A stretch of 64,000 bases of DNA. Origin: Sphingopyxis sp. JAI108. GTDB lineage: Bacteria; Pseudomonadota; Alphaproteobacteria; Sphingomonadales; Sphingomonadaceae. This document shows, in pieces, positions 12,462 to 50,870 of the stretch. Positions within the stretch are counted from its first letter, which is position 1; each line of letters opens with the position of its first letter. The translations under genes were made by a program, and so were the position numbers. The stretch covers positions 124,001 to 188,000 of the forward strand of contig NZ_JACCCJ010000002.1 of the NCBI RefSeq assembly GCF_013410105.1, given 5' to 3'. The notes under the pieces are model-generated. The model made no database searches, was not told the origin of the DNA, and was given only the letters and a program-made list of their open reading frames with translations.

Positions 12462-13514
12462 ATGGTTGCCGAAGCCTTGCCTCCGCTGGAAGAACGCCTC
12501 GAAGCCGTCGCGCGCGCGCATGGGTTCGCGGCGTTCGGGATCGCAAATGCCGATGCGGCGCCGCAGACGGCGGCGCGGCTGAACCAGTGGCTTGCCGAGG
12601 GGCGCCACGGCGACATGATCTGGATGGAGAGCCGCGCCGAGCAGCGCGGATCGCCCAAAGGACTGTGGCCCGACGTAAAATCGGTGATCGCGCTGGGGAT
12701 GAGCTATGCGCCGGCGCTCGATCCGCTAGCGCTGGCCGAGCATCCGGACCGCGGGCGGATTTCGGTCTATGCGCAGGGCGGCGACTATCATGACGTCGTC
12801 AAGAAGGCGCTGAAGGCCGTCGCGCGATGGCTGGTCGGCGAAGCGAAAGACGCCGAGGTCAAGGTGTTCGTCGACACCGCGCCGGTGATGGAAAAGCCGC
12901 TGTCGGCAGCGGCGGGGCTCGGCTGGCAGGGCAAGCACACCAACCTCGTCAGCCGCGAACATGGCAGCTGGCTGTTCCTGGGCGCGATTTACACGACACT
13001 CGACCTAGAGCCGTCGATGGCGGGGCGCGATACGTGCGGCAGCTGCTCGGCGTGCCAGGATGCGTGCCCGACCGACGCCTTCCCCGCGCCGTACCGGCTC
13101 GATGCGCGGCGCTGCATCTCTTACCTCACGATCGAGCATAACGGCCCGATCCCGGTGGCGCTGCGGCGCGGGATCGGCAACCGCGTCTATGGGTGCGACG
13201 ATTGCCTCGCCGCCTGCCCGTGGAACAAATTCGCCGACACCGCGCATACGCACCGCGCCTTTCTGCCGCGCGCCGAATTGGCGGCGCCATCGATCGGCGA
13301 CCTGCTCGACCTCGACGATGCGGGGTTCCGGCAGGTCTTTGCCGGGTCGCCGATCAAGCGGATCGGGCGCGGGCGGATGGTGCGCAACGCCGCGATCGCG
13401 GCGGGGAACAGCGGGGACAGGGCGTTCGTTCCGGCGCTCGAAAGATTGGCGACGGATGAATCGCCGATGGTCGCCGATGCGGCTTTATGGGGGCTCGACG
13501 AACTGGCGTCGTGA
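12462..13514 (+). CDS. queG: Epoxyqueuosine reductase QueG
   Basis: A 350-residue cytoplasmic enzyme that converts epoxyqueuosine in tRNA to queuosine, the last step of queuosine synthesis, using cobalamin and two 4Fe-4S clusters. Both cluster motifs are present: [12 protein letters not shown] from residue 192 and CDDCLAACP from residue 245, with [12 protein letters not shown] between them. The C-terminal HEAT-like tail is complete. The frame is open far upstream, but the ATG at 12462 gives the normal N-terminus. It is divergent from the ABC transporter; no other queuosine gene is in the window. Confidence 0.93.
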
Positions 13515-13530
13515 CGTCGTTTGTCGGGGA

Positions 13531-13547
13531 AGCGGGCCGGTCCCGCT
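13531..13547. terminator. Possible bidirectional stem-loop between queG and the lipoprotein gene
   Basis: The hairpin AGCGGG-CCGGT-CCCGCT lies between the convergent ends of queG (13514) and the lipoprotein gene (13552). There is no clear T-run on either side, so it is a weak candidate. Confidence 0.3.
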
Positions 13548-13551
13548 CAGC

Positions 13552-13926
13552 CTAACGCCGCAGCGCCTGCGCGCAGCTGTTCACCTCGGCGTTGCGGCCG
13601 TCGGGGGTGCGCGCATCGACATGCGTCGCGACCGGGTCGGCGCCCGCGCGCGGGGCGTAGAAATAGACGTCGAGGATGCAGCTCGACCCGGCATATTGCA
13701 GCTTGCGGCCGGCGCCTTCGGTGACGTCAAGCCGCGGCTTGCCGAACATGCGGCCGATCGCGTCGGCGCTATTCCCGATCAGCGCATTATTCTGCACCGG
13801 TCGCACGACCGTCGGCGGGGGCGCGGTGGACCGCGGGGGTGTCGCGCGCGGAATCGCGGGACCGGCGCAGGCGCCGAGCGTCAGGCCGAGCAGCGCAATG
13901 GCGCCGAGGCGGCGGTTATCGATCAT
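13552..13926 (-). CDS. Small predicted lipoprotein
   Basis: A 124-residue protein with a signal peptide ending in a lipobox (LGLTLGAC, Cys near residue 20), so it is probably anchored in a membrane after export. A Pro/Thr-rich linker leads to a small domain with IGRMFGKP and two cysteines. The family is not recognised beyond 'sphingomonad lipoprotein'. Its start overlaps the stop of the EI24 gene (ATGA), so both are likely read from one transcript. Confidence 0.7.
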   Translation of the reverse strand: MIDNRRLGAIALLGLTLGACAGPAIPRATPPRSTAPPPTVVRPVQNNALIGNSADAIGRMFGKPRLDVTEGAGRKLQYAGSSCILDVYFYAPRAGADPVATHVDARTPDGRNAEVNSCAQALRR

Positions 13927-14606
13927 GTTTCGGGGTCCCCCTTGCCGAGATGCAGCATGTGGACCGCCATAGCGGCGCTCAATATCGGCGCCAACAAATT
14001 GGCGACGGGCACCACGAAGCTTGCGGCGGACAGCAGCCCGAGCGACCAGCGCGCCGGCCGGTCGAGGCGCGGGTGGTCCGGGTGGCGCGCAAGCACCATC
14101 GCCTCGAGGTCGCGGCCCAGCAGCAACGCGTTGACGAGGAGCGCGAAGATCGGCGTGCCGATCCCGGTGACGAGCAACACGATATAGACGGGGAGCGCGA
14201 GCAGGTTGCCGCCGATCAGCCGGGTGAGCGAGGCGAGGGCGAGGCGGATATTCTGCGGCCAGCCGACATCGACGGCGCGCCGCGCGGCAGCGGGATAGTG
14301 GCGCCCTTCGACATCGGCGACGATGCCGTCGGCGAAGAGGCCGATCACGACGATCGCGACGGCGCGAAAGAGCAGCCAGCTTCCCGCGACGATGAGGAGG
14401 ACGATCAGGACGCCAGCCATGTCGAGCGGCGCTCCGTCCAGCCATTGCCAATGGGCGAGCGCCCAGCGTGCGGCGAAAAAGATCGCGGCCCCCGAGGCGG
14501 CAAGCAGCAGCAGTGTGAGCGCGAGGCTTTGCGCGAGCACGCGCAGGACGCGCGGGTGGGGCAGGTCTCGCAGCGCGAGCAGGAAGGCGTGGGCGGCGCG
14601 GGTCAT
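13923..14606 (-). CDS. EI24 domain-containing membrane protein (CysZ-like)
   Basis: A 227-residue inner-membrane protein with four to five hydrophobic segments and the EI24/CysZ pattern (an amphipathic GNLLALPVYIVLLV region, then FALLVNALLLGRD near the C-terminal third). Relatives include the sulfate transporter CysZ. No cysteine or sulfate genes are nearby, so the substrate is unknown. The upstream frame is open, but the ATG at 14606 matches the family start. It is upstream of and coupled to the lipoprotein gene. Confidence 0.75.
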   Translation of the reverse strand: MTRAAHAFLLALRDLPHPRVLRVLAQSLALTLLLLAASGAAIFFAARWALAHWQWLDGAPLDMAGVLIVLLIVAGSWLLFRAVAIVVIGLFADGIVADVEGRHYPAAARRAVDVGWPQNIRLALASLTRLIGGNLLALPVYIVLLVTGIGTPIFALLVNALLLGRDLEAMVLARHPDHPRLDRPARWSLGLLSAASFVVPVANLLAPILSAAMAVHMLHLGKGDPET

Positions 14607-20797: not shown

Positions 20798-21483
20798 CGG
20801 GCGGATTGCCGCTGATCGTCACTCGGCCCGAACCGGGAAATGCCGCAACGGTCGAGCGTGCAACGGCGATGGGGTTCGATGTCCATGCAACGCCGCTTTT
20901 CGCGGCGCGTCCGGTCGAGTGGCGCGCTCCGGCGGCCGGAGATTTCGATGCCCTGCTGCTGACCAGCGCCTTCGCCCCGCGGCTCGCCGGGGCGGGGATT
21001 GCCGGCCTTTCCGCCCTCCCCGCCTATGCGGTGGGCACCGCGACCGCGCGCGCCGCCGGGGCGGCAGGCTTGACGGTGGCGATGACCGGAACGGCGGATG
21101 CGCAGCGCCTTCTTGATGCCATGACGTCAGCGAATATCCGCCGGATTCTGTGGCTTTGCGGCCGCGAACGGTCGGAATTCGACGCGCGCGGCGCGGCCAT
21201 CGTGCCATTGCCCTGCTATGCCGTCGATCCCGTTCCGCCGCCGGCGGGATGGGCCGAACTGATCGCCGCGCCCGCAGTGCTGCTTGCGCACTCCCCGCGC
21301 GCGGCAACGCGCCTGGCGAGCCTCGTCGGCGCGGCGCGCGCACACCTGTCACTCGCCGCGATCAGCCCTGCTGTAGCGGCGGCGGCGGGGGAGGGGTGGC
21401 GCGAAGTCGCGGTAGCGGAACGGCCCGACGATGTCGCCATATTGGCACAGGCGCGTGCTTTGTGGCACAAGGGTACGAAATAG
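20794..21483 (+). CDS. hemD: Uroporphyrinogen-III synthase
   Basis: A 229-residue protein with the weakly conserved HemD fold: TRPEPGNAATVE at the start, LLLTSAFAPR, AVGTATARAA, LCGRERSEF and LLAHSPRAATRLASL. HemD cyclises hydroxymethylbilane with ring-D inversion, acting directly after HemC. Position and four-base overlap with hemC strengthen the call. The next gene starts 20 bases downstream and is probably cotranscribed. Confidence 0.9.
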   Translation: MTGGLPLIVTRPEPGNAATVERATAMGFDVHATPLFAARPVEWRAPAAGDFDALLLTSAFAPRLAGAGIAGLSALPAYAVGTATARAAGAAGLTVAMTGTADAQRLLDAMTSANIRRILWLCGRERSEFDARGAAIVPLPCYAVDPVPPPAGWAELIAAPAVLLAHSPRAATRLASLVGAARAHLSLAAISPAVAAAAGEGWREVAVAERPDDVAILAQARALWHKGTK

Positions 21484-37086: not shown

Positions 37087-37163
<77 letters not shown>

Positions 37164-39644: not shown

Positions 39645-41237
39645 ATGGCCGATTTGCGGGAGGCCCTCGCCGCCGCGCGGAGCTATCGCGGCGCCGCGCA
39701 AACGGCGCTCGGCGAGCGGCTGGCGTCGCGGCCGATCGACGCCGAGCAGCGCGCGGCGCACGGTTTCGCGTGGGTCGCGACGACGGTCGCGGCGCTCGAA
39801 GCGACGCTGGACTGGTGCGAGTCCGGCCGGGACTCGAACCCGCTCGATGCGAAGATCGCCACGCTCGCCTTCGCCGAAGGGATCGGACAGCTCGCCGGCG
39901 GGCTGCCGATGGGGCAGAACGAGATTTTCCGCCCCGCCGACCTCGGCATTGCCGCCGCCGGGTGCAACCTTGCCAATGCCTGCGCCGACTTGCTCGACGC
40001 CGACCACGCGGCAACCCGCGCCGAGGTCGCCGCTGCGCTCGCCGGGGGTCACTGGCCGAGCGAGACGCTCCACGACGCCGACCTCGACGCGATCCGCGAT
40101 CAATATCGCCGCTTCACCGACGCCGCGATCATTCCGCATGCGCATGGCTGGCACCTCGCCAACGCGCTGATCCCCGATGTCACCGTTCGGGCGATGGCCG
40201 ACCTCGGCACCTTCGGCGTCTGCATCCCTGAAGCGTTCGGCGGGCTGGGCCTCGGTAAGCTCGTCATGTGCATCGTCACCGAGGAGCTGTCGCGCGGCTG
40301 GATCGGCGCGGGGTCGCTCGGCACGCGGTCGGAGATCGCAGGCGAGCTGATCGCGATGGGCGGCACCGACGCGCAAAAGGCGGAATGGCTGCCGAAGATC
40401 GCAAGCGGGGAGGTGTTGCCGACCGCCGTGTTCACCGAACCCGACGTCGGGTCGGACCTCGGCTCGCTCCAGACGCGCGCGCGGCGCGCCGACGATCATT
40501 GGGTGATCGACGGCGCGAAAAACTGGATCACCCACGCCGCGCGCTCGGACCTGATGACCCTGCTGGCGCGCACCGTCCCCGACGCGAAGGGCTATGCCGG
40601 CCTCTCGATGCTGCTCGTCCCGAAACCGCGCGGGACCGACGCTGATCCCTTTCCGGCGGCGGGCATGGGCGGCAGCGAGATCGAAGTGCTCGGCTATCGC
40701 GGGATGCGCGAATATGCGTTGCAGTTTGACGGCATGACGGCGCCCGCCGACGCGCTGCTCGGCGGCGAGGAGGGGCAGGGCTTCAAGCAATTGATGCGGA
40801 CCTTCGAGGGCGCGCGCATACAGACCGCCGCGCGCGCGGTCGGCGTCGCGCGGCGCGCGCTCGAACTCGGGCTCGACTATGCGCTCGCCCGCAAGCAGTT
40901 CGGCAAGGCGATCGTCCATTTCCCGCGCGTCGCCGACAAGCTCGCGATGAGCCTCGTCGATTTCGTCGTGGCGCGCGAGCTGAGCTATGCCGCCGCGCGC
41001 GCCAAGGACAGCGGCAAGCGCTGCGACATCGAGGCGGGCATGGCGAAGCTGCTCGGTGCGCGGGCCGCCTGGTCGAACGCCGACGCCAGCCTGCAGATCC
41101 ACGGCGGCAACGGCTATGCGCTCGAATATGAAATCAGCCGCGTGCTGTGCGATGCGCGCATCCTCAATATCTTCGAGGGCGCGGCGGAGATTCAGGCGCA
41201 GGTGATCGCGCGCGGGCTGATCGAAGGGCGAAACTAG
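39645..41237 (+). CDS. Large acyl-CoA dehydrogenase, methylsuccinyl-CoA dehydrogenase (Mcd)-like
   Basis: A 530-residue protein, about 150 residues longer than usual acyl-CoA dehydrogenases because of an N-terminal helical extension. Core motifs start near residue 150: FGVCIPEAFGGLGLG, FTEPDVGSDLGSL, NWITHAARSD, and NIFEGAAEIQAQVIARGL with the catalytic Glu511. The extension plus FEGAAEIQAQ resembles (2S)-methylsuccinyl-CoA dehydrogenase of the ethylmalonyl-CoA pathway. No ccr, ecm or mch gene is in the window, so the pathway is unproven. Its last four bases overlap the convergent lyase gene. Confidence 0.78.
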   Translation: MADLREALAAARSYRGAAQTALGERLASRPIDAEQRAAHGFAWVATTVAALEATLDWCESGRDSNPLDAKIATLAFAEGIGQLAGGLPMGQNEIFRPADLGIAAAGCNLANACADLLDADHAATRAEVAAALAGGHWPSETLHDADLDAIRDQYRRFTDAAIIPHAHGWHLANALIPDVTVRAMADLGTFGVCIPEAFGGLGLGKLVMCIVTEELSRGWIGAGSLGTRSEIAGELIAMGGTDAQKAEWLPKIASGEVLPTAVFTEPDVGSDLGSLQTRARRADDHWVIDGAKNWITHAARSDLMTLLARTVPDAKGYAGLSMLLVPKPRGTDADPFPAAGMGGSEIEVLGYRGMREYALQFDGMTAPADALLGGEEGQGFKQLMRTFEGARIQTAARAVGVARRALELGLDYALARKQFGKAIVHFPRVADKLAMSLVDFVVARELSYAAARAKDSGKRCDIEAGMAKLLGARAAWSNADASLQIHGGNGYALEYEISRVLCDARILNIFEGAAEIQAQVIARGLIEGRN

Positions 41238-42397
41238 AGCCAGAGCAAAGGCTGGCGCACGGGAAAGTTGCGCACGACCTCGCCGACAACGGGATCGGGG
41301 TCGAGCCTTTGCCAGAGGGTCAGCCAGTCGCCGCGTTGCTGCGCGAGACCGCCGAAGAGCAGGTTCGGCTGGCGCACCGGGAAGCCGTCCCAATATTCGA
41401 CATCGGGCGCGCGCGGCCATTTACCCTTGCCGGCGATATAGGGGGCCATCCATGCGATCGCGCCGGCGATCGAGCGACCGTCGGCGGTCTTCCAGCCGAT
41501 CAGTTCGCCGCCGCCGAGCAGCCACGCCGATGCCGCGAGCACGTCGAGGTTGAAGAGCGAATAGGCATAAGGCTTGGTGCGCGCGAGTTCGAGCGGCTGG
41601 CGACCGTCGGGGGCGATCTGTGTCGGGACGATGATCGTCTTGAGCCGGGTTCGGGCGTCGGCGAGAATGTCGGCGCGGCCGAGCAGCGCGGCGAAGCTCG
41701 CCGCCTGCAGCAGCCAGCAGCTGCCGTGGTTGTTCTTCTCGTCGCGTTCCTCGATGCCGAAGGGTGAGGTGGTGAGCCAGCCCAGATAGGATGCGAACCA
41801 GTCCTCGACGTCGGTGCGGATCGCGGCATAGCCCGGCGCGTTCCGCCGCGCGAACAGCGTCGCGGCGCGCGCGACCTCGACGATCTGCAGCGTGTCGATC
41901 ACCCCGATCGCGCGGCCGCTGTTGACGCCGATGATCGCTTGCGCATGGTCGAGGTTAGGATTCATTCGCGTTTTCGGATCGACGAACCATGCGTGGAGGT
42001 GGCGCATCGCAGCATCGGCAAAGCGCGCGTCGGCGGTGAGGTTCCACAGCGCCGCGAGCGCGGGGACGGTACGCCCGAACGCGATCAGCGCGTCGCGGTG
42101 GCCGTCGAACTTGTCGGGGTTCGAGCGGCCGTCGCGGCGGACATAGGGGCCGCCGGGGCTCGCCGGGTCGGGCCACCAATAATCGCCCTCCGAATAATAA
42201 TCCTGCCGCCCGGCGGGACTGCGCGGCGCCGGGACCGCGGCGACGGTGCGCGGTTCGGCGGCGAGCAGCGCTTCGGCCTGCGGCAGCAGGCGGCGGCGCT
42301 CGATCGCACGGACATCGATCGTCGCGGCGCCCGGCCGCGCCCATGCCGCAGGCGCGGCGAGAAGCGTGGCGAGGAGCAGGGTGCGGCGGGCGATCAT
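41234..42397 (-). CDS. Alginate-lyase-fold polysaccharide lyase (PF05426-type), second copy
   Basis: A 387-residue secreted protein: signal peptide (RRTLLLATLLAAPAAWA), then an alpha/alpha-toroid lyase domain. Conserved features: the DYYSEGDYWWPDP N-terminal motif, TRMNPNLDHAQAI, the catalytic NNHG near residue 220, and RTKPYAYSLFNL, which holds the Arg and Tyr positions of PL5-type enzymes. It should cut a uronic-acid polymer by beta-elimination, leaving unsaturated ends. PL5-, PL38- and related families share this fold, so alginate is not certain. Third gene of the TonB-lyase-lyase unit, coupled by ATGA. Confidence 0.8.
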   Translation of the reverse strand: MIARRTLLLATLLAAPAAWARPGAATIDVRAIERRRLLPQAEALLAAEPRTVAAVPAPRSPAGRQDYYSEGDYWWPDPASPGGPYVRRDGRSNPDKFDGHRDALIAFGRTVPALAALWNLTADARFADAAMRHLHAWFVDPKTRMNPNLDHAQAIIGVNSGRAIGVIDTLQIVEVARAATLFARRNAPGYAAIRTDVEDWFASYLGWLTTSPFGIEERDEKNNHGSCWLLQAASFAALLGRADILADARTRLKTIIVPTQIAPDGRQPLELARTKPYAYSLFNLDVLAASAWLLGGGELIGWKTADGRSIAGAIAWMAPYIAGKGKWPRAPDVEYWDGFPVRQPNLLFGGLAQQRGDWLTLWQRLDPDPVVGEVVRNFPVRQPLLWL

Positions 42398-43650
42398 CGT
42401 TCGTCCTTTACGGCGATGCGGTGGCGCAACAACAGGTCGCCGTCGACAGCGCGCGGATAGGCGCCCGGACCCCACGCGTCGTCGGCGCGCACGAGCAGTT
42501 CGTCCAGCATGGCGGCGGGCCAGCCCCGCTCCCGATAGCGCCAGTCGGACGCGCGCCCGCGAAAGGCGGCGACATAATCGGTCGCCTTGCGCAGCGAGCG
42601 GCCCTTTTCCTCGACGTGATAAAGGTCGCTGCCAAGGCATGCCGCGCTGTCGGCGACTGTGTAGGCGGCGGAGAGCGCATAGAGCGAATAATGGAAGCTG
42701 CGCGTCCGGGTCAGCTCCTTCGGTAGCGCGCCGGATGGATCGACTTGTCGCGCGAGGCGCTTCGCGGGAAAGGCGGCGACGATCCGGCGCGCGACATCGG
42801 GGCGCCGCGCAAACAGCGCGAAACGCGCGACCTGCGCATCGTACCAGAGACCGTGATTGTTGGATGCCTTGCCTTCGGCCCTGCCGTTCGGGCTTGTCAG
42901 CATCCAGTCGGTGTAGCGCGAAAACCAGCTTTCGAGCGCCTCTGTCTCGGCGGGCGTCAGCGCGCCCGAGGGTGCGATCAGGCCGACGGCGTCGATCGCC
43001 GCGATGAAGCCGGCGCCGTCGAGCACGCCTTCGGCGCGGCCGTTCGACACGCCGGGCACGGCCTGCGCGAAGTTCATGTTCGGGTTCATGCGCGTCGCGG
43101 GGTCGAGAAACCACGCGCGGATGGCGCGCGCGGCGCCGTCGGCATATGATCGCTCGCCGCTGTAATAATAAGCGAGCGCGAGCGTATCGGCGTCGCGCAC
43201 CATGCGCGCGAGCGCGGCGCGGTCGAAGCGGTCGCTTTCAATGTCCGGGTTGGTGTCGCCGTCGCGGCGCCGATAGGGACCCCTCGGATTCGCGGGATCG
43301 GGCCACCAATAGCGCGCGAGGCTGACATAGTCGTGGCGGTCGCCCGACACGGGGGTGCTGCGCTTGTCGATCACCGACCCGGGTTTCGCCGCAAGCGCCT
43401 TGTCGGCGCGGACGGTCAGGTCGCGATATGCGGCGCCGATCGCGGGGTTGGTCGGCAGCGCCGCCTTGATCGCTTCGAGATCGGCGGGGCGCAACGCGAA
43501 GGTGCGGCGACCGTCGAACGAAGCCGAATAGCCTTCGCTCGCGTCGCAGACGGGCGCCGCCGGGGACAGGGAAAAAGCCGCCGCCGCGGACGGAGTCGCG
43601 GCGGCGGCCAGGATAGCCCAAGGGAGTCGGGCTAAACTCGATGGCGTCAC
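42394..43650 (-). CDS. Alginate-lyase-fold polysaccharide lyase, first copy
   Basis: A 418-residue secreted lyase with signal peptide (about residues 1-25), DYVSLARYWWPDP, TRMNPNMNFAQA, the catalytic NNHG near residue 264, and RTRSFHYSLYAL. It is a diverged paralogue of the next gene with the same core motifs, so the two may cut different linkages or polymer lengths. The start is GTG 43650, which overlaps the TonB receptor stop (GTGA) and is the only start near the signal peptide. The stop overlaps the downstream lyase start. Confidence 0.8.
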   Translation of the reverse strand: MTPSSLARLPWAILAAAATPSAAAAFSLSPAAPVCDASEGYSASFDGRRTFALRPADLEAIKAALPTNPAIGAAYRDLTVRADKALAAKPGSVIDKRSTPVSGDRHDYVSLARYWWPDPANPRGPYRRRDGDTNPDIESDRFDRAALARMVRDADTLALAYYYSGERSYADGAARAIRAWFLDPATRMNPNMNFAQAVPGVSNGRAEGVLDGAGFIAAIDAVGLIAPSGALTPAETEALESWFSRYTDWMLTSPNGRAEGKASNNHGLWYDAQVARFALFARRPDVARRIVAAFPAKRLARQVDPSGALPKELTRTRSFHYSLYALSAAYTVADSAACLGSDLYHVEEKGRSLRKATDYVAAFRGRASDWRYRERGWPAAMLDELLVRADDAWGPGAYPRAVDGDLLLRHRIAVKDER

Positions 43651-46568
43651 AGGCGGACCCGGAAGCCGAAGAAATATTGCGTGCCGCTGCGCGACACCTC
43701 GGCGATGCTGTCGTATCCGCCCTTGTACATGACGTCGTTCGTGCCGGTGACGTTCAGCGCCTGCAGCTTCACCTGGACATTCTCGGTCAGGTTGTACTGC
43801 GCCGAAAGATTGACGTAGGTGGCGCCGCGAATCTCGCGATTGGTGCCGCTGTTCGGCTTGTAATAGCCCGAGCGGTAGCGGAGGTTGGCGCGCAGCGAGA
43901 GGCCCCATTTCTCGAACCATACCGATCCGCTCGCGGTCCATTTCGACAGGCCGATCAGGTTCGCCGGGTTGACATAGTCGGCGATCGGCGAGGTGTCGGG
44001 ATATTCGAAATTGGCGAAGGCGCGGTTGACCGACCCCTGGATGCCGAGCCCGTCGAGCGGGTCGGGAAGCCAGGTGAAGGCGTGGCTCGCGGTCGCCTCG
44101 ATCCCGTAGAGGTGCCGCGTCTCGCTGTCGTTCGTCGGGGCCACCGGCGAAATGGTGACGGTCTCGGTTACCGGCGCGCCGCCGTCGCGGATCGTCGTGA
44201 TCGTGACATCGGTCGGGATCGGCTCCTCGGCGCTGATCACCGTGCCCTTCGCCCATTTATAATAGCCCGCGATCGAGAGCAGCGTATCTTGCGAAGCGTA
44301 AAGTTCGAGGCTCGCGTCGAGGTTCCACGCGCGTAGCGGCTTGAGGTTCGGGTTGCCGGTGGTGGCGTCGAAGATGATATTGTCGAGCCCGGTCCCCGCT
44401 GAGGGGTTGAGCCGGATGCCCGCGCCGAAGCTTTCGATCCCCGACCGCGCGATCGCGCGATAGGCGGCGAAGCGCAACTTGACCTCTTGCAACAGGTCGA
44501 ACGCGATATTCGCGCTCGGCAGGAAGTAATTATAGCTGCCTTTGGCGCGGTTCGTCTGGAGTTCGCCATTCGGGTCGGGGTCGACGCTATAGCTGTCGCC
44601 GGCGGTGTCGATCGTGATCACATAGGGCTGGCGATAGCCGATCGAGGTGATCTCGGTCTTGACCCAGCGCAGCCCGATATTGCCGCTGAACGGCACGCTG
44701 CCCGCCTGCGATTCGAAATTGGCGAGGCCGTAGAGCGCATAGATGCGCTCGGTGACGTCGATGTCGCTCGGATCGCGCCCGTCGGTTGGATAGGGAAGCG
44801 CATCGTCGCCGCCGGTGAAGGTGCGGAACAGGCAGTCGTTGTCGAAGGTCGCCCAACGCGTGACGTTGGTGCCCATGCCCTGTATGTAGCTGGTGGTGGT
44901 AAAGGGCACGCGGCATAGCTGGTTCGCCTGCGCGATCAGCTCGGCTGGGGTAGCGCCGTCGATTTCAGCGAGCGTGTTGAGGTCGTTGTTGCGCGCATTG
45001 TCGTTGGTGCGGTGATGGTCCGAATAGCGGCCGCCGACCTTGACCGAGGTGATGAAGCCGTCGAGTTCGCGCTCGATATCGAGCCGTCCGGCCCAGATGC
45101 GGTCGCGGCGGTCGGTGACGAAGCGGTTGCGCGCATAGACCGAATTGGGCGCGGTGGTCAGGAACAGGTCGTGGTCGGTGATGTCGAAATCCTCGAACTC
45201 GACATTCGGCACGACATCGTCGTCCAGATAGGTCAGCGTATAGCCGACGCGGCGGTTCGAACGCATGCGCGTCGCTTTCTGCGTCTCGGTGCGGTGGCTG
45301 TCCGAATAGGAGCCGTCGAAGCTGACCGTCCAGCGGTCGGGCGTCCAGATCAGGCCCAGGCCCCCGCCCTTGTAGGTTTCGTTGCGCTGGCGCGTTTCGA
45401 GCTGGTTCTCGATATTCGAATTGCCGCGATAGCTGATCAGCGCGCCGGGTGAGTAGCCATTGCTGCCGTCGCCGATGATCAGCGGCTCGAGTCCGCGCAG
45501 GCTTTCGGGAATGCCCAGCACATTGCGGTCCTCGCGGCTGCGGCGCTTCGAATATTGGCCGTCGATCGCGACCTCGAATTCGGGCGATGGACGCCATTGG
45601 ATCGAGCCGATCAGCCCGTCGCGCACTTCCGACGTCTTTTGGGTGCGGAAGCTGCGCGATGAGGTCGGGAAATAAGTGTCGCCGATCGTCTCGCCGACGG
45701 TGACGCCATTGGCGGTGCGCGGTCCCTCGGCGAAGGTGCAGTTGATATTGGCGCCGGCGGCGGCCTGCGCCGCGGCATTGCCGGTCAGCTGCCAGGGATT
45801 GTCGGCCGACGTGTTGCAGAGCTGAAAGGTCGAATTGCCGTTGTAATAATCCTCGGGCGCGCTTGTGTCCTGCCGCTGGTAACCGATCGACACGCCGATG
45901 TCGCCGAGCCCGGTTTCATATTGGTCGGTATAGGCGAAATTGGCGCGATAGCCGAGCCCGTCGTGCTGATAGACATCGTTGTCCTGCGGCTGGAAATCGC
46001 CGCGCACCTCGAACTGGATGCGCCGCCTGCCATAGTCGAGGGGCTTCATCGAGCGGAGTTCGATCACCCCGCCGACGCCGCCTTCGAGGAAGTCGGCGCG
46101 CTGTGATTTATAAACGAGGACGCCGTTCACCAGCTCCGACGGGAATTGCTGGAAGGCGACCGAACGGTCGGGTCCCGCCGTCGACACCTCGCGGCCGTTG
46201 AAGGTCGAGAAGCTGAGCGTCGGCCCGAGGCCGCGTACCGACAGCTCGTTGGCATTGCCCTTGAAGCGGTCGGCCGAAACGCCGGCGATGCGTTCGAGCG
46301 TGTCGCCGACCGAATTGTCGGGCGTGGCGCCGATCTCGTCGCTGACAAGGCCGTCGACGACGACGTCGGCGGCGCGCTTGAACTCGATCGAACTGCGCTG
46401 CGTCGCGCGCGTTCCGGTGACGAGGATTTCGTCATCGCCATCGACCGCCGGAACCTGCTCGCCTTCGATGTCGGCGGGCGCTTCCTGTGCCCACAGGGGC
46501 GTGGCGGCGAACAGCGCGGCCGACGCCAGCAACGCGGCGCGAGTCGGCAAGACCGATGATGACTTCAT
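43647..46568 (-). CDS. TonB-dependent receptor, Xanthomonas/Caulobacter type
   Basis: A 973-residue receptor. Signal peptide (about 1-28, ending ATPLWAQ), TonB box DEILVTGTRA, a plug with VSADRFKGNANELSVRGLG and FLEGGVGGVIELRS, then a long barrel ending FFGFRVRL. The size and plug motifs match the TonB-Xanth-Caul group that imports oligosaccharides. The ATG at 46568 follows GGAGAGGGAAA. Together with two coupled lyase genes it makes an uptake-and-cleavage operon. Two GntR-like sites and one LacI-like site lie 48-100 bases upstream. Confidence 0.9.
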   Translation of the reverse strand: MKSSSVLPTRAALLASAALFAATPLWAQEAPADIEGEQVPAVDGDDEILVTGTRATQRSSIEFKRAADVVVDGLVSDEIGATPDNSVGDTLERIAGVSADRFKGNANELSVRGLGPTLSFSTFNGREVSTAGPDRSVAFQQFPSELVNGVLVYKSQRADFLEGGVGGVIELRSMKPLDYGRRRIQFEVRGDFQPQDNDVYQHDGLGYRANFAYTDQYETGLGDIGVSIGYQRQDTSAPEDYYNGNSTFQLCNTSADNPWQLTGNAAAQAAAGANINCTFAEGPRTANGVTVGETIGDTYFPTSSRSFRTQKTSEVRDGLIGSIQWRPSPEFEVAIDGQYSKRRSREDRNVLGIPESLRGLEPLIIGDGSNGYSPGALISYRGNSNIENQLETRQRNETYKGGGLGLIWTPDRWTVSFDGSYSDSHRTETQKATRMRSNRRVGYTLTYLDDDVVPNVEFEDFDITDHDLFLTTAPNSVYARNRFVTDRRDRIWAGRLDIERELDGFITSVKVGGRYSDHHRTNDNARNNDLNTLAEIDGATPAELIAQANQLCRVPFTTTSYIQGMGTNVTRWATFDNDCLFRTFTGGDDALPYPTDGRDPSDIDVTERIYALYGLANFESQAGSVPFSGNIGLRWVKTEITSIGYRQPYVITIDTAGDSYSVDPDPNGELQTNRAKGSYNYFLPSANIAFDLLQEVKLRFAAYRAIARSGIESFGAGIRLNPSAGTGLDNIIFDATTGNPNLKPLRAWNLDASLELYASQDTLLSIAGYYKWAKGTVISAEEPIPTDVTITTIRDGGAPVTETVTISPVAPTNDSETRHLYGIEATASHAFTWLPDPLDGLGIQGSVNRAFANFEYPDTSPIADYVNPANLIGLSKWTASGSVWFEKWGLSLRANLRYRSGYYKPNSGTNREIRGATYVNLSAQYNLTENVQVKLQALNVTGTNDVMYKGGYDSIAEVSRSGTQYFFGFRVRL

Positions 46569-46615
46569 TTTCCCTCTCCTTTTCCTGCCGCCCCTGATCT
46601 GCGGCGATGACCCGG

Positions 46616-46631
46616 TTGATACCGGTGTCAA
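46616..46631. promoter_or_regulatory. Putative LacI-family operator upstream of the TonB receptor
   Basis: TTGATACCGGTGTCAA is a near-perfect palindrome that fits the general LacI/CcpA-type consensus TGNNANCGNTNNCA. A second match lies before the GH88-like gene at 47924-47939. No LacI gene is in the window. Confidence 0.5.
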
Positions 46632-46636
46632 TCTTA

Positions 46637-46668
46637 GATGTCATACAACTTATGAAATGTATTACAAC
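46637..46668. promoter_or_regulatory. Two tandem GntR-like sites upstream of the TonB receptor
   Basis: GATGT-CAT-ACAAC (46637-46649) and AATGT-ATT-ACAAC (46656-46668) are repeats 19 bases apart, near two helical turns. They share the NNTGT-N3-ACAAC pattern with the perfect palindrome GTTGT-CAC-ACAAC at 47972-47984. They lie where the promoter of the receptor operon is expected. Confidence 0.5.
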
Positions 46669-46731
46669 TTTGATGGGGGAAGTCAATCGTTCGCGTGGCG
46701 GGTCGGTCCGGTGGAGTATATCCGCCAGATA

Positions 46732-47883
46732 TCAAGACCTTCCGCGTTTTCTCGCCAAGTCGTACATGGCCGTCCCGGCGAGCAGATAGGCGCCGCTGCC
46801 ATAGAATTGCGTCTCCTTCGCCGACACGCTGTCGGGACGGTCGCCGACCTGCTGAACCCAGCCGAGCATCCCGTCGGGCTGCACCGCGCGGCCGAGCGCA
46901 GCCCAGCCGCGCACCGCGGCGGGCTCGTAAGTCGCGCGGTCGAGCAAGCCATTGTCGACCCCCCACGCAAAGGCATAGGTGAAGAAGGCGGTGCCGCTCG
47001 ATTCGGGCGGCGTGCCGCGATCATCGTCAAGCAGCGAGGCGGGCCAGTATCCGTCGGCCTTTTGCAGCGTCACCAGCTTCGTGGCCATGTTCTTGAACAG
47101 CTTCTCGTAATAGGGGCGCTCGGGGTCCTTTTCGTCGAGCACCTGCAGCACGCGGACGAGCCCGCCCATCACCCAGCCATTGCCGCGGCTCCAGAACAGC
47201 TTGCGCCCCTTGGCGTCGCGCATGTCGAAAAAGCGGCTGTCGCGGAAATAGAGCTGCTCCGACGGGTCGAAGAGATAATCGGTCGTCGCCTTCCACTCCT
47301 CGTGCACGAAATCGGCATAACGCTTGTCACCCGTCGCCTTGGCGAGGCGCAGCATGGTCGGGGGCGCCATGAACAAGGCGTCGCACCAGCACCAGCGGTC
47401 GGTGCAGGTCGATGTGCCCTTGCCCGGCGCGACGGGAATGAATTCGAGCCCGATCGTCGGGCGGTTGGCGAGCACATGGTCGAAATAGGTTCGCATCGGC
47501 GTGATGGCCTGCCTGCCAGCGCCATTTTGCGCCGCCCACAGCCACGCCTGCCCGATCAGCTGGTCGTCGGCGTGGAAGGGAAGGTCGCCCATCTGCCATT
47601 TCTCGGCGCGGCCGAGATCGAGCAGCGGTTTGGCGTATCGCCTGTCGCGATTCGCAAGTTCGGTGAGCGCGACCCAGAAGGTTGCCTGCTGCCAGTCGCG
47701 CACCTCCTGCACGCTCTTGCGCGCGGCGGGCATCGTCGCCCAGTTGGTTCGGTTCGCGAGCTGCCAGTCCGCGACGCGGCGCGTTTCGGCGAGGATCGCG
47801 GCGGGCTGCGGCATCGCGGGCTGGGCGGGCGCCGCCACCGCGGCGGGCGCCGTCATCATCATGGAAAACAGGCTCAGCGACAT
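46732..47883 (-). CDS. GH88/GH105-type unsaturated glycuronyl hydrolase
   Basis: A 383-residue alpha/alpha-barrel hydrolase with a signal peptide (MSLSLFSMMMTAPAAVAA). Family motifs: WQMGDLPFHADDQ, WCWCDALFMAPP with the catalytic-type Asp, LFWSRGNGWVMGGL, and SSGTAFFTYAFAWGV. These enzymes remove the unsaturated uronic residue left by polysaccharide lyases, which fits the two lyases next door. GGGAGAGG places the start at ATG 47883. It is transcribed leftwards from the control region shared with manD. Confidence 0.85.
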   Translation of the reverse strand: MSLSLFSMMMTAPAAVAAPAQPAMPQPAAILAETRRVADWQLANRTNWATMPAARKSVQEVRDWQQATFWVALTELANRDRRYAKPLLDLGRAEKWQMGDLPFHADDQLIGQAWLWAAQNGAGRQAITPMRTYFDHVLANRPTIGLEFIPVAPGKGTSTCTDRWCWCDALFMAPPTMLRLAKATGDKRYADFVHEEWKATTDYLFDPSEQLYFRDSRFFDMRDAKGRKLFWSRGNGWVMGGLVRVLQVLDEKDPERPYYEKLFKNMATKLVTLQKADGYWPASLLDDDRGTPPESSGTAFFTYAFAWGVDNGLLDRATYEPAAVRGWAALGRAVQPDGMLGWVQQVGDRPDSVSAKETQFYGSGAYLLAGTAMYDLARKRGRS

Positions 47884-47923
47884 GGCATATCCTCTCCCTT
47901 TCAAGCCGGCCCGGCTTTTCGCC

Positions 47924-47939
47924 TTGACACCGGTGACAT
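47924..47939. promoter_or_regulatory. Putative LacI-family operator upstream of the GH88-type gene
   Basis: TTGACACCGGTGACAT matches TGNNANCGNTNNCA at every fixed position, as does the site at 46616-46631. It lies 41-56 bases before the ATG at 47883. Confidence 0.5.
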
Positions 47940-47971
47940 ACCTCTTTCCTTTTCTCGCAAGTGTCAATAAT

Positions 47972-47984
47972 GTTGTCACACAAC
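47972..47984. promoter_or_regulatory. Perfect palindrome, probable GntR operator between GH88-type gene and manD
   Basis: GTTGT-CAC-ACAAC is a 13-base perfect palindrome of the FadR-subfamily style, 28 bases before the manD ATG (48012) and about 90 before the GH88-type ATG. The GntR regulator is encoded two genes downstream of manD. Confidence 0.6.
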
Positions 47985-48011
47985 TAGCCCATATTGGCCA
48001 GAGGGGATGGA

Positions 48012-49223
48012 ATGCCGAAGATCGTGTCAGCCCGGGTGATATCGACGTCGCCGGGCCGCAATTTCACGACGCTGAAGATCGAATGCGACGACGGCACGAC
48101 CGGCGTTGGCGATGCGACGCTCAACGGCCGCGAACTGGCCGTCGCGCACTATCTGTCCGAGCATGTCGCCCCCTGCCTGATCGGGCGCGACGCGCACCGG
48201 ATCGAGGATATCTGGCAATTTCTCTACAAGGGCGCCTATTGGCGGCGCGGCCCGGTGACGATGACGGCGATCGCGGCGGTCGACATGGCGTTGTGGGACA
48301 TCAAGGGCAAGGTCGCGGGGCTGCCGGTCTATCAATTGCTCGGCGGCGCGGCGCGCGAGGGCTGCATGGTCTATGGCCATGCCAACGGGGCGACGATCGC
48401 CGATACGATCGAGGCGGCGCTCGACTACCAGCGGCAGGGATATAAGGCGATTCGCCTGCAATGCGGCGTGCCGGGGATGGCGTCGACCTATGGCGTCAGC
48501 AAGGACCGCTACTTCTACGAGCCTGCCGACAATGACCTGCCGACCGAGAATGTCTGGTCGACGGCGAAATATATGCGCGTCGTCCCCGAATTATTCGCTG
48601 CGGCGCGCGAGGCGCTCGGCTGGGACGTCCATCTGCTCCACGACATCCATCACCGGCTCACCCCGATCGAGGCGGCGCGGCTCGGCAAGGATCTGGAGCC
48701 TTACCGCCCCTTCTGGATCGAGGATGCGACCCCGGCGGAAGATCAGGATGCGTTCCGCCTGATCCGCCAGCATACGACGACGCCGCTCGCCGTCGGCGAA
48801 ATCTTCTCGTCGGTGTGGGACTGCAAGGCGCTGATCGAAAACCGGCTGATCGACTATATCCGCGCGACCGTGCTCCACGCGGGCGGCATCACCCATATGC
48901 GCCAGATCGCTTCGCTCGCCGACCTGCACCAGGTCCGCACCGGCTGTCACGGCGCGACCGACCTGTCGCCGGTGACGATGGCCGCGGCGCTGCACCTGGG
49001 GCTCGCCATTCCCAATTTCGGAATCCAGGAATATATGCGCCACACGGCGGAGACCGACGCGGTCTTCCCGCATGCCTATCGCTTTGCTGACGGCATGCTT
49101 CATCCCGGCGACGCGCCCGGTCTCGGCGTCGATATCGACGAGGCGCTCGCCGGAACCTTTCCTTATACCCGTGCCTTTCTGCCGGTGAATCGGCTTGAGG
49201 ACGGCACAATGTGGAGCTGGTGA
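48012..49223 (+). CDS. manD: D-mannonate dehydratase (enolase superfamily, ManD type)
   Basis: A 403-residue enolase-superfamily enzyme that dehydrates D-mannonate to 2-keto-3-deoxy-D-gluconate. Metal and catalytic positions are visible: DIHHRLTP with Asp211 and His213, WIEDATP with Glu237, and GEIF with Glu263, one position off the numbering of the characterised Novosphingobium enzyme. Some ManD-like proteins have weak or different dehydratase activity. GAGGGG precedes the ATG. It heads a manD-DUF4861-gntR operon beside the lyase genes and links the polymer to central metabolism. Confidence 0.9.
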
Positions 49224-50149
49224 TGCGAAACCTATTTCTTGTTCTTGCCCTGTTCGCGACCCCGGCGGGCGCGCAGGAGCATAAGCCGATCCGCCCCGCC
49301 ACCGTCGAAGAGCAAGGCGCGCGCGCCGCGGTCACGATCGCGGACTATCGTTTCGACGACCTGCTCTGGGAAAATGACCGGATCGCGTTTCGCATCTATG
49401 GCCGCGCGCTGGAGGCGGCCGAACCGCCGTCGTCGTCGGGGATCGACGCGTGGGGCAAGCGCGTGCGCTGGCCTTATATGGACCGGCAATTGCGCACCGG
49501 CGACCAGCATGCCGACCATGGCGAGGGGGTCGATTTCTATAATGTCGGCACGGGGCGCGGCGCTGGCGGGCTTGGCATCTGGCACGACAACAAGCTGTGG
49601 ACCTCGCGCAACTATGTGCGGCCGCGCATCCTGCGATCGGGACCGGACGTCGCCGACTTCGCCGTCGATTACGAACCCTGGCCCGTTGATACGCAGCGCA
49701 CGGTGCGCGAGACGCGACGCTTCACCTTGCCCGCGGGCACGAATTTCACGCGGTTGAACTCGACGATCATGTCGAGCAGCGATGCCGAGCTGATCGTCGG
49801 CATCGGCATCTCCAAGCGGCCGATCGGGGGCGCGAAGCTGGGTGACATCAGGAAGGACGAAGCGGCGGCCCGCATGAGCTGGTGGGGGCCCGCCGACGGC
49901 GACAAGGGGCGGATGGCGGCGGCGGTGATCGTCGATCCGGCGGCCTTTGCTGGTTTCGCCGAGGACGCCGACAATTATCTGATCCTCGTTCGCGTCCAGC
50001 CGGGGCGGCCCTTCGTCTATTACAGCGGCGCGGCATGGGACAAGGGTGGCGATTTTGCGACCGAGGCCGACTGGAATCGCTATGTCGATGCACAGCGCCC
50101 CGATTTCCGGCCCGAGGCCTTGACCCTAGCCAGCTTCGCGGCGCGATGA
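49223..50149 (+). CDS. DUF4861 secreted protein
   Basis: A 308-residue protein with a signal peptide (RNLFLVLALFATPAGAQ), then a beta-rich DUF4861 domain: YRFDDLLWENDRIAFRIYG, DFYNVGTGRGAGGLGIW and FVYYSGAAWDKGGDF. DUF4861 is often found near GH88/GH105 and pectin, ulvan or alginate genes, and may be a periplasmic enzyme on uronic oligosaccharides; no activity is established that I can name. The start codon overlaps the manD stop (TGATG) and follows GTGGAG. Confidence 0.82.
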   Translation: MRNLFLVLALFATPAGAQEHKPIRPATVEEQGARAAVTIADYRFDDLLWENDRIAFRIYGRALEAAEPPSSSGIDAWGKRVRWPYMDRQLRTGDQHADHGEGVDFYNVGTGRGAGGLGIWHDNKLWTSRNYVRPRILRSGPDVADFAVDYEPWPVDTQRTVRETRRFTLPAGTNFTRLNSTIMSSSDAELIVGIGISKRPIGGAKLGDIRKDEAAARMSWWGPADGDKGRMAAAVIVDPAAFAGFAEDADNYLILVRVQPGRPFVYYSGAAWDKGGDFATEADWNRYVDAQRPDFRPEALTLASFAAR

Positions 50150-50162
50150 TAACGCAGCATCC

Positions 50163-50870
50163 ATGGCGGTAACCAAGGCGGCATCGCTGGCAGACGATCT
50201 GGTCCAGCGTTTCGAGGAACAGATCGAGACGGGCGAAATGCCCGTCGGATCGCGTTTTCCGACCGAAAAGGACATCACCGAGACGTTCGGCGTCAGCCGC
50301 ACCGTCGTGCGCGAGGCCTATTCGCGGCTCGCGGCGCGCGGCCTTCTGGTCTCGCGGCGCGGATCGGGCGCCTATGTTCCCGACGGCGCGCAATATCGCG
50401 CCTTTCAGGTTACCGCCGAGGAAATCGGCGAAATCGACGATGTGCTGAGGCTCCTCGAAATGCGCATGGGGTTCGAGGCCGAGATGGCCGATCTCGCCGC
50501 GCGCCGGCGGACCGACGCCGACCTTGCGGCGCTGCGCCGCACGCTCGACGCGATGGAGGAAAGCCGCGACGTCGATGCGTCGGTCGCCGCCGACGCCGCC
50601 TTTCACGCCGCGATCGCCAGCGCGACCGGCAACCCCTATTTCCTGCGGTTCACCCAGTTTCTCGGCGTCCGGCTCGTGCCATCGCGGCGGCTCTATCTGC
50701 AGGGCGACGATCCGGTCCGGCATCAGCGCTACGCGCACACGATCAACCGCGACCATGAAGCGATCGTCGTCGCGATCGAGGCGGGCGATCCGGTCGCCGC
50801 GCGCCGCGCCGCGCGCCGGCACATCGAAAAGTCGATCCAGCGCTATCGCGGTCTGAAGGAGAGCCGATAG
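50163..50870 (+). CDS. GntR family regulator (FadR subfamily, FCD domain)
   Basis: A 235-residue regulator. The N-terminal winged helix-turn-helix (about 10-75) reads FPTEKDITETFGVSRTVVREA and ends GLLVSRRGSGAYV. The all-helical FCD ligand domain has metal-site histidines in FHAAIASATGN, NRDHEAIV and ARRHIEKS. FadR-type proteins sense acidic metabolites; by context mannonate, a uronate or KDG is a likely effector. The likely DNA targets are the three TGT-N3-ACA palindromes before manD/GH88 and the TonB receptor. Third gene of the manD operon. Confidence 0.87.
   Translation: MAVTKAASLADDLVQRFEEQIETGEMPVGSRFPTEKDITETFGVSRTVVREAYSRLAARGLLVSRRGSGAYVPDGAQYRAFQVTAEEIGEIDDVLRLLEMRMGFEAEMADLAARRRTDADLAALRRTLDAMEESRDVDASVAADAAFHAAIASATGNPYFLRFTQFLGVRLVPSRRLYLQGDDPVRHQRYAHTINRDHEAIVVAIEAGDPVAARRAARRHIEKSIQRYRGLKESR

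What the first reader, a model, noticed from the sequence alone, without database searches (positions are those of the whole stretch)
41234..50870. Polysaccharide-utilisation locus with two lyases, GH88/105, DUF4861 and D-mannonate dehydratase
Seen: a TonB receptor and two diverged alginate-lyase-fold genes are translationally coupled; a GH88/GH105-type gene, manD, a DUF4861 gene and a GntR regulator lie beside them. Known: lyase plus unsaturated glycuronyl hydrolase releases an unsaturated uronate that does not need ManD; ManD handles mannonate derived from saturated glucuronate. Inference: the polymer probably contains glucuronate as well as lyase-cleavable uronate (glucuronan- or ulvan-like, or a bacterial exopolysaccharide) rather than plain alginate. 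No uxaC, uxuB, KDG kinase or KDG aldolase is in the window.
Basis: partly seen in the sequence, partly recalled or inferred. Interest (0 to 1): 0.72.

Follow-up and report, generated by a model that had tools for sequence, protein, structure and literature searches.

The report
Split regulon for eating polyglucuronate
A Sphingopyxis-type bacterium carries a tight cluster of seven genes (an outer-membrane receptor, two lyases, a hydrolase, D-mannonate dehydratase, a protein of unknown function and a regulator) that is predicted to take up and cut a glucuronic-acid-rich polysaccharide other than alginate, and a shared DNA motif likely switches it on together with sugar-acid genes found tens of kilobases away.

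Summary
In detail: seven genes at the stated places, with TBDR-lyaseA-lyaseB and ManD-DUF4861 overlapping. Both lyases are PL38-like and keep the catalytic residues; they fall on opposite sides of a deep split, and three Verrucomicrobiota loci encode the pair as one protein. A separate PL6/PL17 alginate locus exists. The glucuronate genes missing from the window lie elsewhere: uxaC, a uxuB-like gene, an MFS, kduI, an SDR, a PfkB kinase and KDPG aldolase; UxuA was not found. Of 80 congeneric genomes, all 30 with lyase A have UxaC and ManD. A WTGTN3ACAW motif sits in the GH88|ManD gap in 21 of 21 relatives and, in the own genome, also before uxaC-uxuB and a second receptor. Best reading: a GntR regulon for a glucuronate-rich, unsulfated polyuronide, most simply beta-1,4-glucuronan; inferred, not tested. 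Against it: lyase A also co-occurs with PL17, and two relatives lack ManD beside the lyases. Ulvan is not supported. DUF4861 is a predicted beta-sandwich, fused to GH88 in one relative. New variant of a known kind.

The parts
41234..42397 (-). Lyase B (PL38-like, PF05426), N-terminal RR-containing signal-like stretch by eye; catalytic N/H/R/Y kept; in a deep clade that holds neither of the two solved structures in the tree
   Evidence: start from the ATGA overlap
42394..43650 (-). Lyase A (PL38-like, PF05426); H266 and Y321 correspond to BoPL38 H243 and Y298
   Evidence: BoPL38 residues from passages of PMC13169297
43647..46631 (-). TonB-dependent receptor (TIGR01782, 521.5 bits); likely start 46568
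46638..46670 (.). Tandem predicted GntR operators ATGTCATACAA and ATGTATTACAA, starts 19 bp apart, upstream of the TBDR
   Evidence: counterpart before the receptor in at least 15 of 21 relatives
46732..47979 (-). GH88/GH105-type unsaturated glycuronyl hydrolase with signal-like N terminus (by eye); likely start 47883; shares WCDALFMAPP with 4ce7
47973..47983 (.). Predicted GntR operator TTGTCACACAA in the divergent GH88|ManD region
   Evidence: counterpart in 21 of 21 relatives
47994..49223 (+). D-mannonate dehydratase ManD; likely start 48012; the only match of its kind at E <= 1e-120 in the genome
49211..50149 (+). DUF4861 protein, exported by inspection; likely start 49223; predicted beta-sandwich
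50163..50870 (+). FCD-type GntR regulator, presumed to bind the operators

Best explanation
The cluster is likely a polysaccharide-utilisation locus whose receptor, two PL38-like lyases and GH88-type hydrolase are predicted to capture and cut a glucuronate-rich, unsulfated polyuronide, most simply beta-1,4-glucuronan, and whose ManD would finish the catabolism of the glucuronate released. Proposed flow: lyases A and B, probably exported, cut the chain by beta-elimination; the TBDR imports oligomers; GH88 removes the unsaturated end residue, giving 5-keto-4-deoxyuronate plus saturated glucuronate; an MFS encoded before uxaC carries uronate inward. Saturated glucuronate goes UxaC -> UxuB-like -> ManD -> KDG; the unsaturated residue goes KduI -> KduD-like SDR -> KDG; a PfkB kinase and KDPG aldolase finish. 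Shown by calls: gene content, overlaps, conserved catalytic residues, the lyase fusion, presence of the pathway genes, motif conservation. Inferred: substrate, export, enzyme roles, that this GntR binds these sites, and that DUF4861 acts on the released uronate or oligouronide.
For: (1) Both lyases match the solved lyases 3nfv and 8bdq best; N242, H243, R292, Y298 of 8bdq numbering are kept in 111 of 111 aligned rows, both window lyases included. (2) Known PL38 substrates include beta-1,4-glucuronan (CUL-I, TpPL38A) besides alginate, HA and CS (PMC13027841 passages). (3) Separate alginate-type locus: PL6-type, PL17, MFS, SDR, two TBDRs, GntR. (4) UxaC; a dehydrogenase closer to fructuronate reductase (322 bits) than to tagaturonate reductase (174); KduI-SDR-PfkB; KDPG aldolase; UxuA: no match. 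(5) 80 genomes of the genus: UxaC in 30 of 30 lyase-A carriers vs 30 of 50 others (p 2.3e-5); ManD 30 of 30 vs 10 of 50 (p 1.9e-13); UxaC in 40 of 40 ManD carriers vs 20 of 40. (6) UxuA with KduI, GH88 and lyase B, and no ManD hit, in the G175 and AAP38 loci. (7) WTGTNNNACAACTW: 3 hits in the window, all at the two promoter regions, shuffles expect 0.00; in 21 relatives 48 sites of WTGTN3ACAW in 13,020 bp of the two regions vs 12 in 418,938 bp elsewhere; own genome also C2:238,906 at the MFS-uxaC-uxuB operon and C2:219,761 before TBDR2-beta-helix. (8) Lyases A and B in one ORF in L049, L051, L058. (9) No sulfatase, hexosaminidase or neutral-sugar hydrolase in the seven genes or ten neighbour ORFs scanned.
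Against: Lyase A also co-occurs with PL17 (24 of 30 vs 15 of 50, p 2.1e-5), so an alginate link is not excluded, though 6 carriers lack PL17; phylogeny was not controlled. PL38 is polyspecific. CUL-I, the characterised alphaproteobacterial glucuronan lyase, could not be placed; its strain has one PF05426 gene (PMC5477187). Sphingomonas L032 and L071 hold GH88 and both lyases but show no ManD or UxuA in the fetched stretch; L027, L029, L032 and L071 show no DUF4861. ManD occurs in 10 genomes without lyase A. The receptor-side motif was found in 15 of 21 by the rule used; the window also holds two motif copies inside other reading frames, at 21460 and 48291. The uxaC stretch also holds a pectate-lyase-like gene and a galactarate-dehydratase-like gene, so its motif may serve galacturonate. 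The UxuB-like gene (cut-off 603) and the MFS (231 bits, cut-off 395) are under their NCBIfam cut-offs. In G271 the same core stands without any PL38 in 20 kb. Verrucomicrobial A-B fusions sit beside sulfatases and GH2 in L049, so the pair does not imply one polymer everywhere.
Confidence: 0.5

Rival explanations
1. The polymer is a GlcA-containing heteropolysaccharide (sphingan-like exopolysaccharide, hyaluronan/chondroitin-like, or a plant or algal chain); lyases cut at GlcA and GH88 strips the unsaturated cap, while other glycosidases are encoded elsewhere.
For: PL38 enzymes cut HA and CS, and Akkermansia pairs a PL38 with a GH105 on GAGs. GH88 is nearest to a rhamnoglycuronyl hydrolase, 4ce7. 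A paralogous GH88-DUF4861 fusion in G175 sits with GH28 and GH2.
Against: No other glycosidase or sulfatase in the seven genes or ten scanned neighbours; the rest of the genome was not searched for them. With one GlcA per repeat, as in gellan, the GlcA would leave as the unsaturated form and ManD would not be needed (reasoning).
Confidence: 0.28
2. It is a second alginate system for M-rich or acetylated alginate that acts beside the PL6/PL17 locus.
For: BoPL38 and Aly38A cut alginate; lyase A co-occurs with PL17, 24 of 30 vs 15 of 50; 3nfv and 8bdq fall on the lyase-A side of the tree.
Against: ManD, GH88 and UxaC have no part in the usual DEH route (pathway knowledge); 6 of 30 carriers have no PL17; no such motif in the 20 kb around the own alginate genes.
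Confidence: 0.12
3. It serves pectin or rhamnogalacturonan: the motif-linked loci elsewhere (beta-helix protein, pectate-lyase-like gene, galactarate-dehydratase-like gene, KduI) mark a galacturonate regulon.
For: A motif site lies between the dehydratase-like gene and the MFS-uxaC-uxuB operon; the beta-helix protein matches Pect-lyase_RHGA_epim weakly in G175.
Against: ManD acts on mannonate, which derives from glucuronate, not galacturonate (pathway knowledge); the dehydrogenase is closer to fructuronate reductase; no pectin activity of PL38 in the passages seen.
Confidence: 0.1

Closest known systems
Brevundimonas sp. SH203 cellouronate (beta-1,4-glucuronan) system, lyases CUL-I (PL38) and CUL-II
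   Same: Alphaproteobacterium; PL38-family lyase; two lyases reported for one polyglucuronate (PMC5477187 whole text; CUL-I as PL38 in PMC13027841 passages)
   Different: That paper reports one PF05426 gene, so CUL-II is presumably another family; it describes no locus, receptor, GH88, ManD or DUF4861; CUL-I sequence not placed here
BoPL38 of Bacteroides ovatus (taken to be 8bdq, since H243 and Y298 fall in place) and 3nfv
   Same: PF05426 lyase; H243 and Y298 kept in lyases A and B
   Different: BoPL38 lies in a Bacteroides alginate PUL (passages of PMC11381880); 8bdq and 3nfv sit on the lyase-A side of the tree on long branches
Akkermansia muciniphila Amuc_0778 PL38 with Amuc_0863 GH105
   Same: PL38 lyase followed by a GH105-type hydrolase on unsaturated uronyl ends (passages of PMC11790493; one legend there writes Amuc_0771)
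   Different: Acts on GAGs; no TBDR-linked locus in the passages read
Formosa agariphila ulvan pathway with oligosaccharide dehydratase P29_PDnc
   Same: A helper enzyme prepares uronyl ends for GH105 (passages of PMC8511951)
   Different: Putative dehydratases were predicted with the PL37 family there, not DUF4861; that pathway has sulfatases and GH78, not seen here

Membership tests
PL38 polysaccharide lyases | Alginate_lyase (PF05426) domain most similar to PL38-type solved enzymes rather than PL5 | tested here: met
   8bdq/3nfv at 125-258 bits; PL5 A1-III at most 33 bits for lyase A, none at E <= 1e-3 for lyase B
PL38 polysaccharide lyases | Catalytic His and Tyr (H243, Y298) with N242 and R292 | tested here: met
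   Kept in both lyases and in 111 of 111 rows
PL38 polysaccharide lyases | Beta-elimination on a uronan | not testable with these tools
   Needs assay
PL38 polysaccharide lyases | CAZy family model match | not tested
   No CAZy/dbCAN library at hand
GH88/GH105 unsaturated glycuronyl hydrolases | PF07470 domain with the catalytic Asp motif (YteR D143, role recalled) | tested here: met
   228.3 bits against cut-off 26.6; D200 aligns with YteR 143
D-mannonate dehydratase ManD | NCBIfam equivalog cut-off | tested here: met
   722.8 bits against 550; nearest solved chain 3thu, 799.9 bits
FCD-type GntR regulator | GntR and FCD domains over cut-off | tested here: met
   65.4 and 96.8 bits
BT3233 family (NCBIfam NF058564) | Curated cut-off of 320 bits | tested here: not met
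   203.4 bits; a DUF4861 relative, not a BT3233 equivalog
Galactose mutarotase-like beta-supersandwich | Fold match of the predicted model | tested here: inconclusive
Alginate utilisation locus (PL6/PL17/DEH reductase) | PL17 or PL6 plus DEH reductase in the locus | tested here: not met
   None among the seven genes and ten neighbours; PL17 and a PL6-type gene lie on contig C3
Ulvan PUL | Sulfatases, rhamnosidase, PL24/25/28/40 | tested here: not met
   None among the seven genes and ten neighbour ORFs; the rest of the genome was not searched

The most novel reading that the evidence does not exclude
A dedicated polyglucuronate regulon: one GntR controls two receptor modules (TBDR1-lyaseA-lyaseB here; TBDR2-beta-helix protein 50 kb away, joined to lyase B in six relatives) plus the glucuronate pathway; lyase B founds an uncharacterised PL38 subfamily that works as partner of lyase A; the beta-helix protein is a third, new lyase; and DUF4861 is a new uronate mutarotase/epimerase family tied to GH88.
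Probability: 0.3. Interest if true: 0.68.

Novelty: new variant of a known kind. Interest (0 to 1): 0.52.

Why it matters
Bacterial glucuronan breakdown is known, in the papers seen, from a few purified lyases. This gives a whole candidate system with import, cutting, sugar release, both catabolic branches and regulation, frequent in one genus (lyase A in 30 of 80 genomes), with parts shared with Caulobacter, Niveispirillum and, for the lyases, Verrucomicrobiota and Bacteroidota. It ties a domain of unknown function (DUF4861) and a PL38 clade without a solved structure in the tree to concrete, cheap assays, and it warns that the 'alginate lyase' names of these proteins may mislead.

Tried and rejected
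Plain alginate locus: demoted because a PL6/PL17 locus exists elsewhere and ManD/GH88 do not fit; not excluded because lyase A and PL17 co-occur. Ulvan: no sulfatase or rhamnosidase in the locus. DUF4861 as the P29_PDnc dehydratase: the paper predicted such enzymes with the PL37 family; a sequence link was not tested. DUF4861 in print: two searches of the held library found 0 papers. A described glucuronan locus in Sphingopyxis: none seen in the listings; these cover only the held open-access library, and searches listed 20 of 70 and 20 of 25 papers. TGGT...ACCA (UxuR/ExuR-like, recalled) operator: no match in 18 of 18 stretches. Beta-helix protein model: pLDDT 47, not used. A search of solved structures with the G175 beta-helix protein gave only two weak alpha-galactosidase rows over some 60 residues. 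CUL-I placement: the one genome-contig scan kept the best 80 of 190 relatives, none titled Brevundimonas.

Rows dropped and soft spots: the tree script left out segments with a stop or under 240 residues, for example lyase A of L026; the tree is the quick method, with long branches, 37 of 108 inner branches open, and L077/L078, best-hit A, on the B side. The residue-297 contrast was grouped by best hit with two labels set by hand. The gene caller for flanks is a home-made GC-codon script, so some gene ends in fetched loci are approximate. In one search the receptor test looked 400 bp past the tblastn end of GH88; it misses the two sites of L025 at 5745 and 5764 and one of L044 at 5732 seen, so 15 of 21 is a lower bound. 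Two papers disagree on CUL-I and alginate: inactive in PMC9029943, active in PMC9227215 (passages). Ten neighbour ORFs were scanned, not the whole window.
Full report
WHAT IS THERE. The window is C2:124001-188000 of a 4.05 Mb, 99.98% complete genome; the named best matches of its lyases are Sphingopyxis proteins. Between CoA-transferase, thiolase and acyl-CoA dehydrogenase genes on one side and a sigma factor and FlhA-family flagellar gene on the other lie seven genes: lyase B, lyase A, TonB receptor and GH88-type hydrolase on the minus strand; ManD, DUF4861 and an FCD-GntR regulator on the plus strand. TBDR-lyase A-lyase B overlap by four bases each and ManD-DUF4861 by one. The N termini of both lyases, GH88 and DUF4861 look like signal peptides by eye; no predictor was run.

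THE LYASES. Both are nearest to the solved lyases 3nfv and 8bdq, far from PL5. In BoPL38, Y298 and H243 abstract the proton for syn and anti elimination (passages of PMC13169297). In the 8bdq numbering these positions are Tyr and His; with N242 and R292 they are kept in 111 of 111 aligned rows, including both window lyases. Residue 297 differs: His in 43 of 50 A-type rows, Ala/Gly/Ser in 60 of 61 B-type rows (grouped by best hit, two labels set by hand). A tree of 111 rows splits A from B with SH-aLRT 100, with both solved structures on the A side and long branches noted. Most striking, three Verrucomicrobiota loci (L049, L051, L058) encode one protein of 768-770 residues whose first half groups with A and second half with B (two PF05426 stretches confirmed in L049). 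So the pair is old and probably works on one substrate. Among the 80 fetched loci I count 21 Sphingomonadales loci with A and B side by side.

NOT THE ALGINATE LOCUS. Contig C3 carries a TBDR, a PL6-type gene (Chondroitinas_B), PL17, MFS, SDR, a second TBDR and a GntR gene. PL17 also includes glucuronan and hyaluronan lyases (passages of PMC5966431), so the alginate label of that locus is an inference from its whole make-up. Across 80 genomes of the genus, lyase A is in 30 and PL17 in 39; 6 lyase-A carriers lack PL17 and 15 PL17 carriers lack lyase A, yet the two are associated (24 of 30 vs 15 of 50), which counts against a clean separation.

THE GLUCURONATE ROUTE. Candidates for all four exist elsewhere: UxaC (NCBIfam 578 bits, cut-off 387) at C2:241 kb, with an MFS before it (TIGR00893, 231 bits, under its cut-off; 47% identical to the MFS of the G175 locus) and after it a dehydrogenase closer to fructuronate reductase (322 bits) than to tagaturonate reductase (174), though under the cut-off of 603; KduI, an SDR and a PfkB kinase at C2:225.6-228.4 kb; a KDPG aldolase on C1. 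UxuA gave no match and ManD one match at E <= 1e-120. All 30 lyase-A carriers have UxaC and ManD; all 40 ManD carriers have UxaC. For 19 carriers whose positions I compared, lyase A and UxaC are on one contig, 74-77 kb apart in 14. In the AAP38 and G175 loci UxuA, an unrelated mannonate dehydratase, stands near GH88, KduI and lyase B. Two unrelated mannonate dehydratases thus turn up beside the same lyase and GH88 genes, as expected if saturated glucuronate is released. Against this, the Sphingomonas loci L032 and L071 hold GH88 and both lyases without ManD or UxuA in the fetched stretch.

A SHARED SWITCH. The motif WTGTN3ACAW occurs at 46638 and 46657 (19 bp apart, before the TBDR) and at 47973 (GH88|ManD gap); two more copies in the window lie inside reading frames, at 21460 and 48291. 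The longer WTGTNNNACAACTW hits only the three promoter places; shuffles expect 0.00. In 21 of 21 relatives with both ManD and GH88 in the fetched stretch the motif is in the GH88|ManD gap; at least 15 of 21 have it before the receptor, 12 as a tandem 17-20 bp apart. Density is 48 in 13,020 bp against 12 in 418,938 bp elsewhere in the same loci; six of the elsewhere sites lie just after lyase B, before TBDR2 (L025, L030, L035, L037, L039, L043). In 160 kb of other own-genome sequence there are three sites: before TBDR2 (C2:219,761), between the dehydratase-like gene and the MFS-uxaC-uxuB operon (C2:238,906; counted as inside an ORF by the gene caller, whose start is probably too early), and one inside a called gene in a control stretch. 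The stretch C2:190-210 kb and two of three control stretches have none. TBDR2 is 81-82% identical to the receptor of the Niveispirillum, AAP38, G175 and G271 loci and is followed by a beta-helix protein 77% identical to that of G175. In six Sphingopyxis loci TBDR2 and the beta-helix protein follow lyase B. The window genome therefore looks like a split version of one regulon. That the window GntR is the binder is inference; that FCD regulators favour TnGTnnnACnA is recalled, not from a call.

SUBSTRATE. PL38 precedent spans beta-1,4-glucuronan, alginate, HA and CS. A glucuronate homopolymer needs no more than lyases, a GH88-type enzyme and the two branches to KDG, which is what is present; no sulfatase, hexosaminidase or neutral-sugar hydrolase is among the seven genes or the ten neighbour ORFs scanned. 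Hence glucuronan, or glucuronate blocks, is my first choice at about 0.5; a GlcA heteropolymer is second. The verrucomicrobial fusion of L049 sits with sulfatases and GH2, so the lyase pair has other uses elsewhere.

VERDICT. Observation confirmed; interpretation partly supported and sharpened; a new variant of a known kind with an untested substrate.

Noticed in passing
G000 C1:913.5-920.4 kb (L100:9563-16397): Another candidate uronate locus: KduI homolog, a 718-residue ORF with no Pfam hit at 1e-8, TonB receptor and an FCD-GntR 43% identical to the window regulator.
   Followed up: partly
L013:5054-6763, L015:5021-6670, L101 about 12741-14312: Beta-helix-type protein conserved with TBDR2 and DUF4861 or lyase B; in L013 no PL38 hit lies within the 20 kb, so it may itself be a lyase of a family not in Pfam; its model failed.
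   Followed up: partly
G404, G411, G454: ManD paralogs (68%, and 86% in one place of G454) start about 2.7-2.8 kb from an additional UxaC gene.
   Followed up: no
L079, L080, L081, L083, L084, L085, L087, L089-L094, L097: Single A-side PL38 genes in Enterobacterales (Pantoea, Erwinia, Dickeya, Pectobacterium and others); no other window-locus homolog was hit there, but PL17-like neighbours appear in L080 and L090.
   Followed up: no
L096:8419-11077: Paraglaciecola MAG with a DUF4861 protein (26% identical to the window's) divergent from a PL38 gene: an independent DUF4861-PL38 pairing.
   Followed up: partly
L046:7687-14594: Bacteroidetes locus lyase A - esterase-like (BD-FAE) - lyase B - GH88-like - GH2, an unfused counterpart of the verrucomicrobial A-B fusion.
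   Followed up: partly
G427 and G431, lyase A: The lyase A matches carry one TAA inside the scored span, so the gene may be decaying or the stop is the terminal one.
   Followed up: no
window 37087-37163: tRNA-Arg (ccg), the only tRNA in the window, left of the cluster's neighbours.
   Followed up: no
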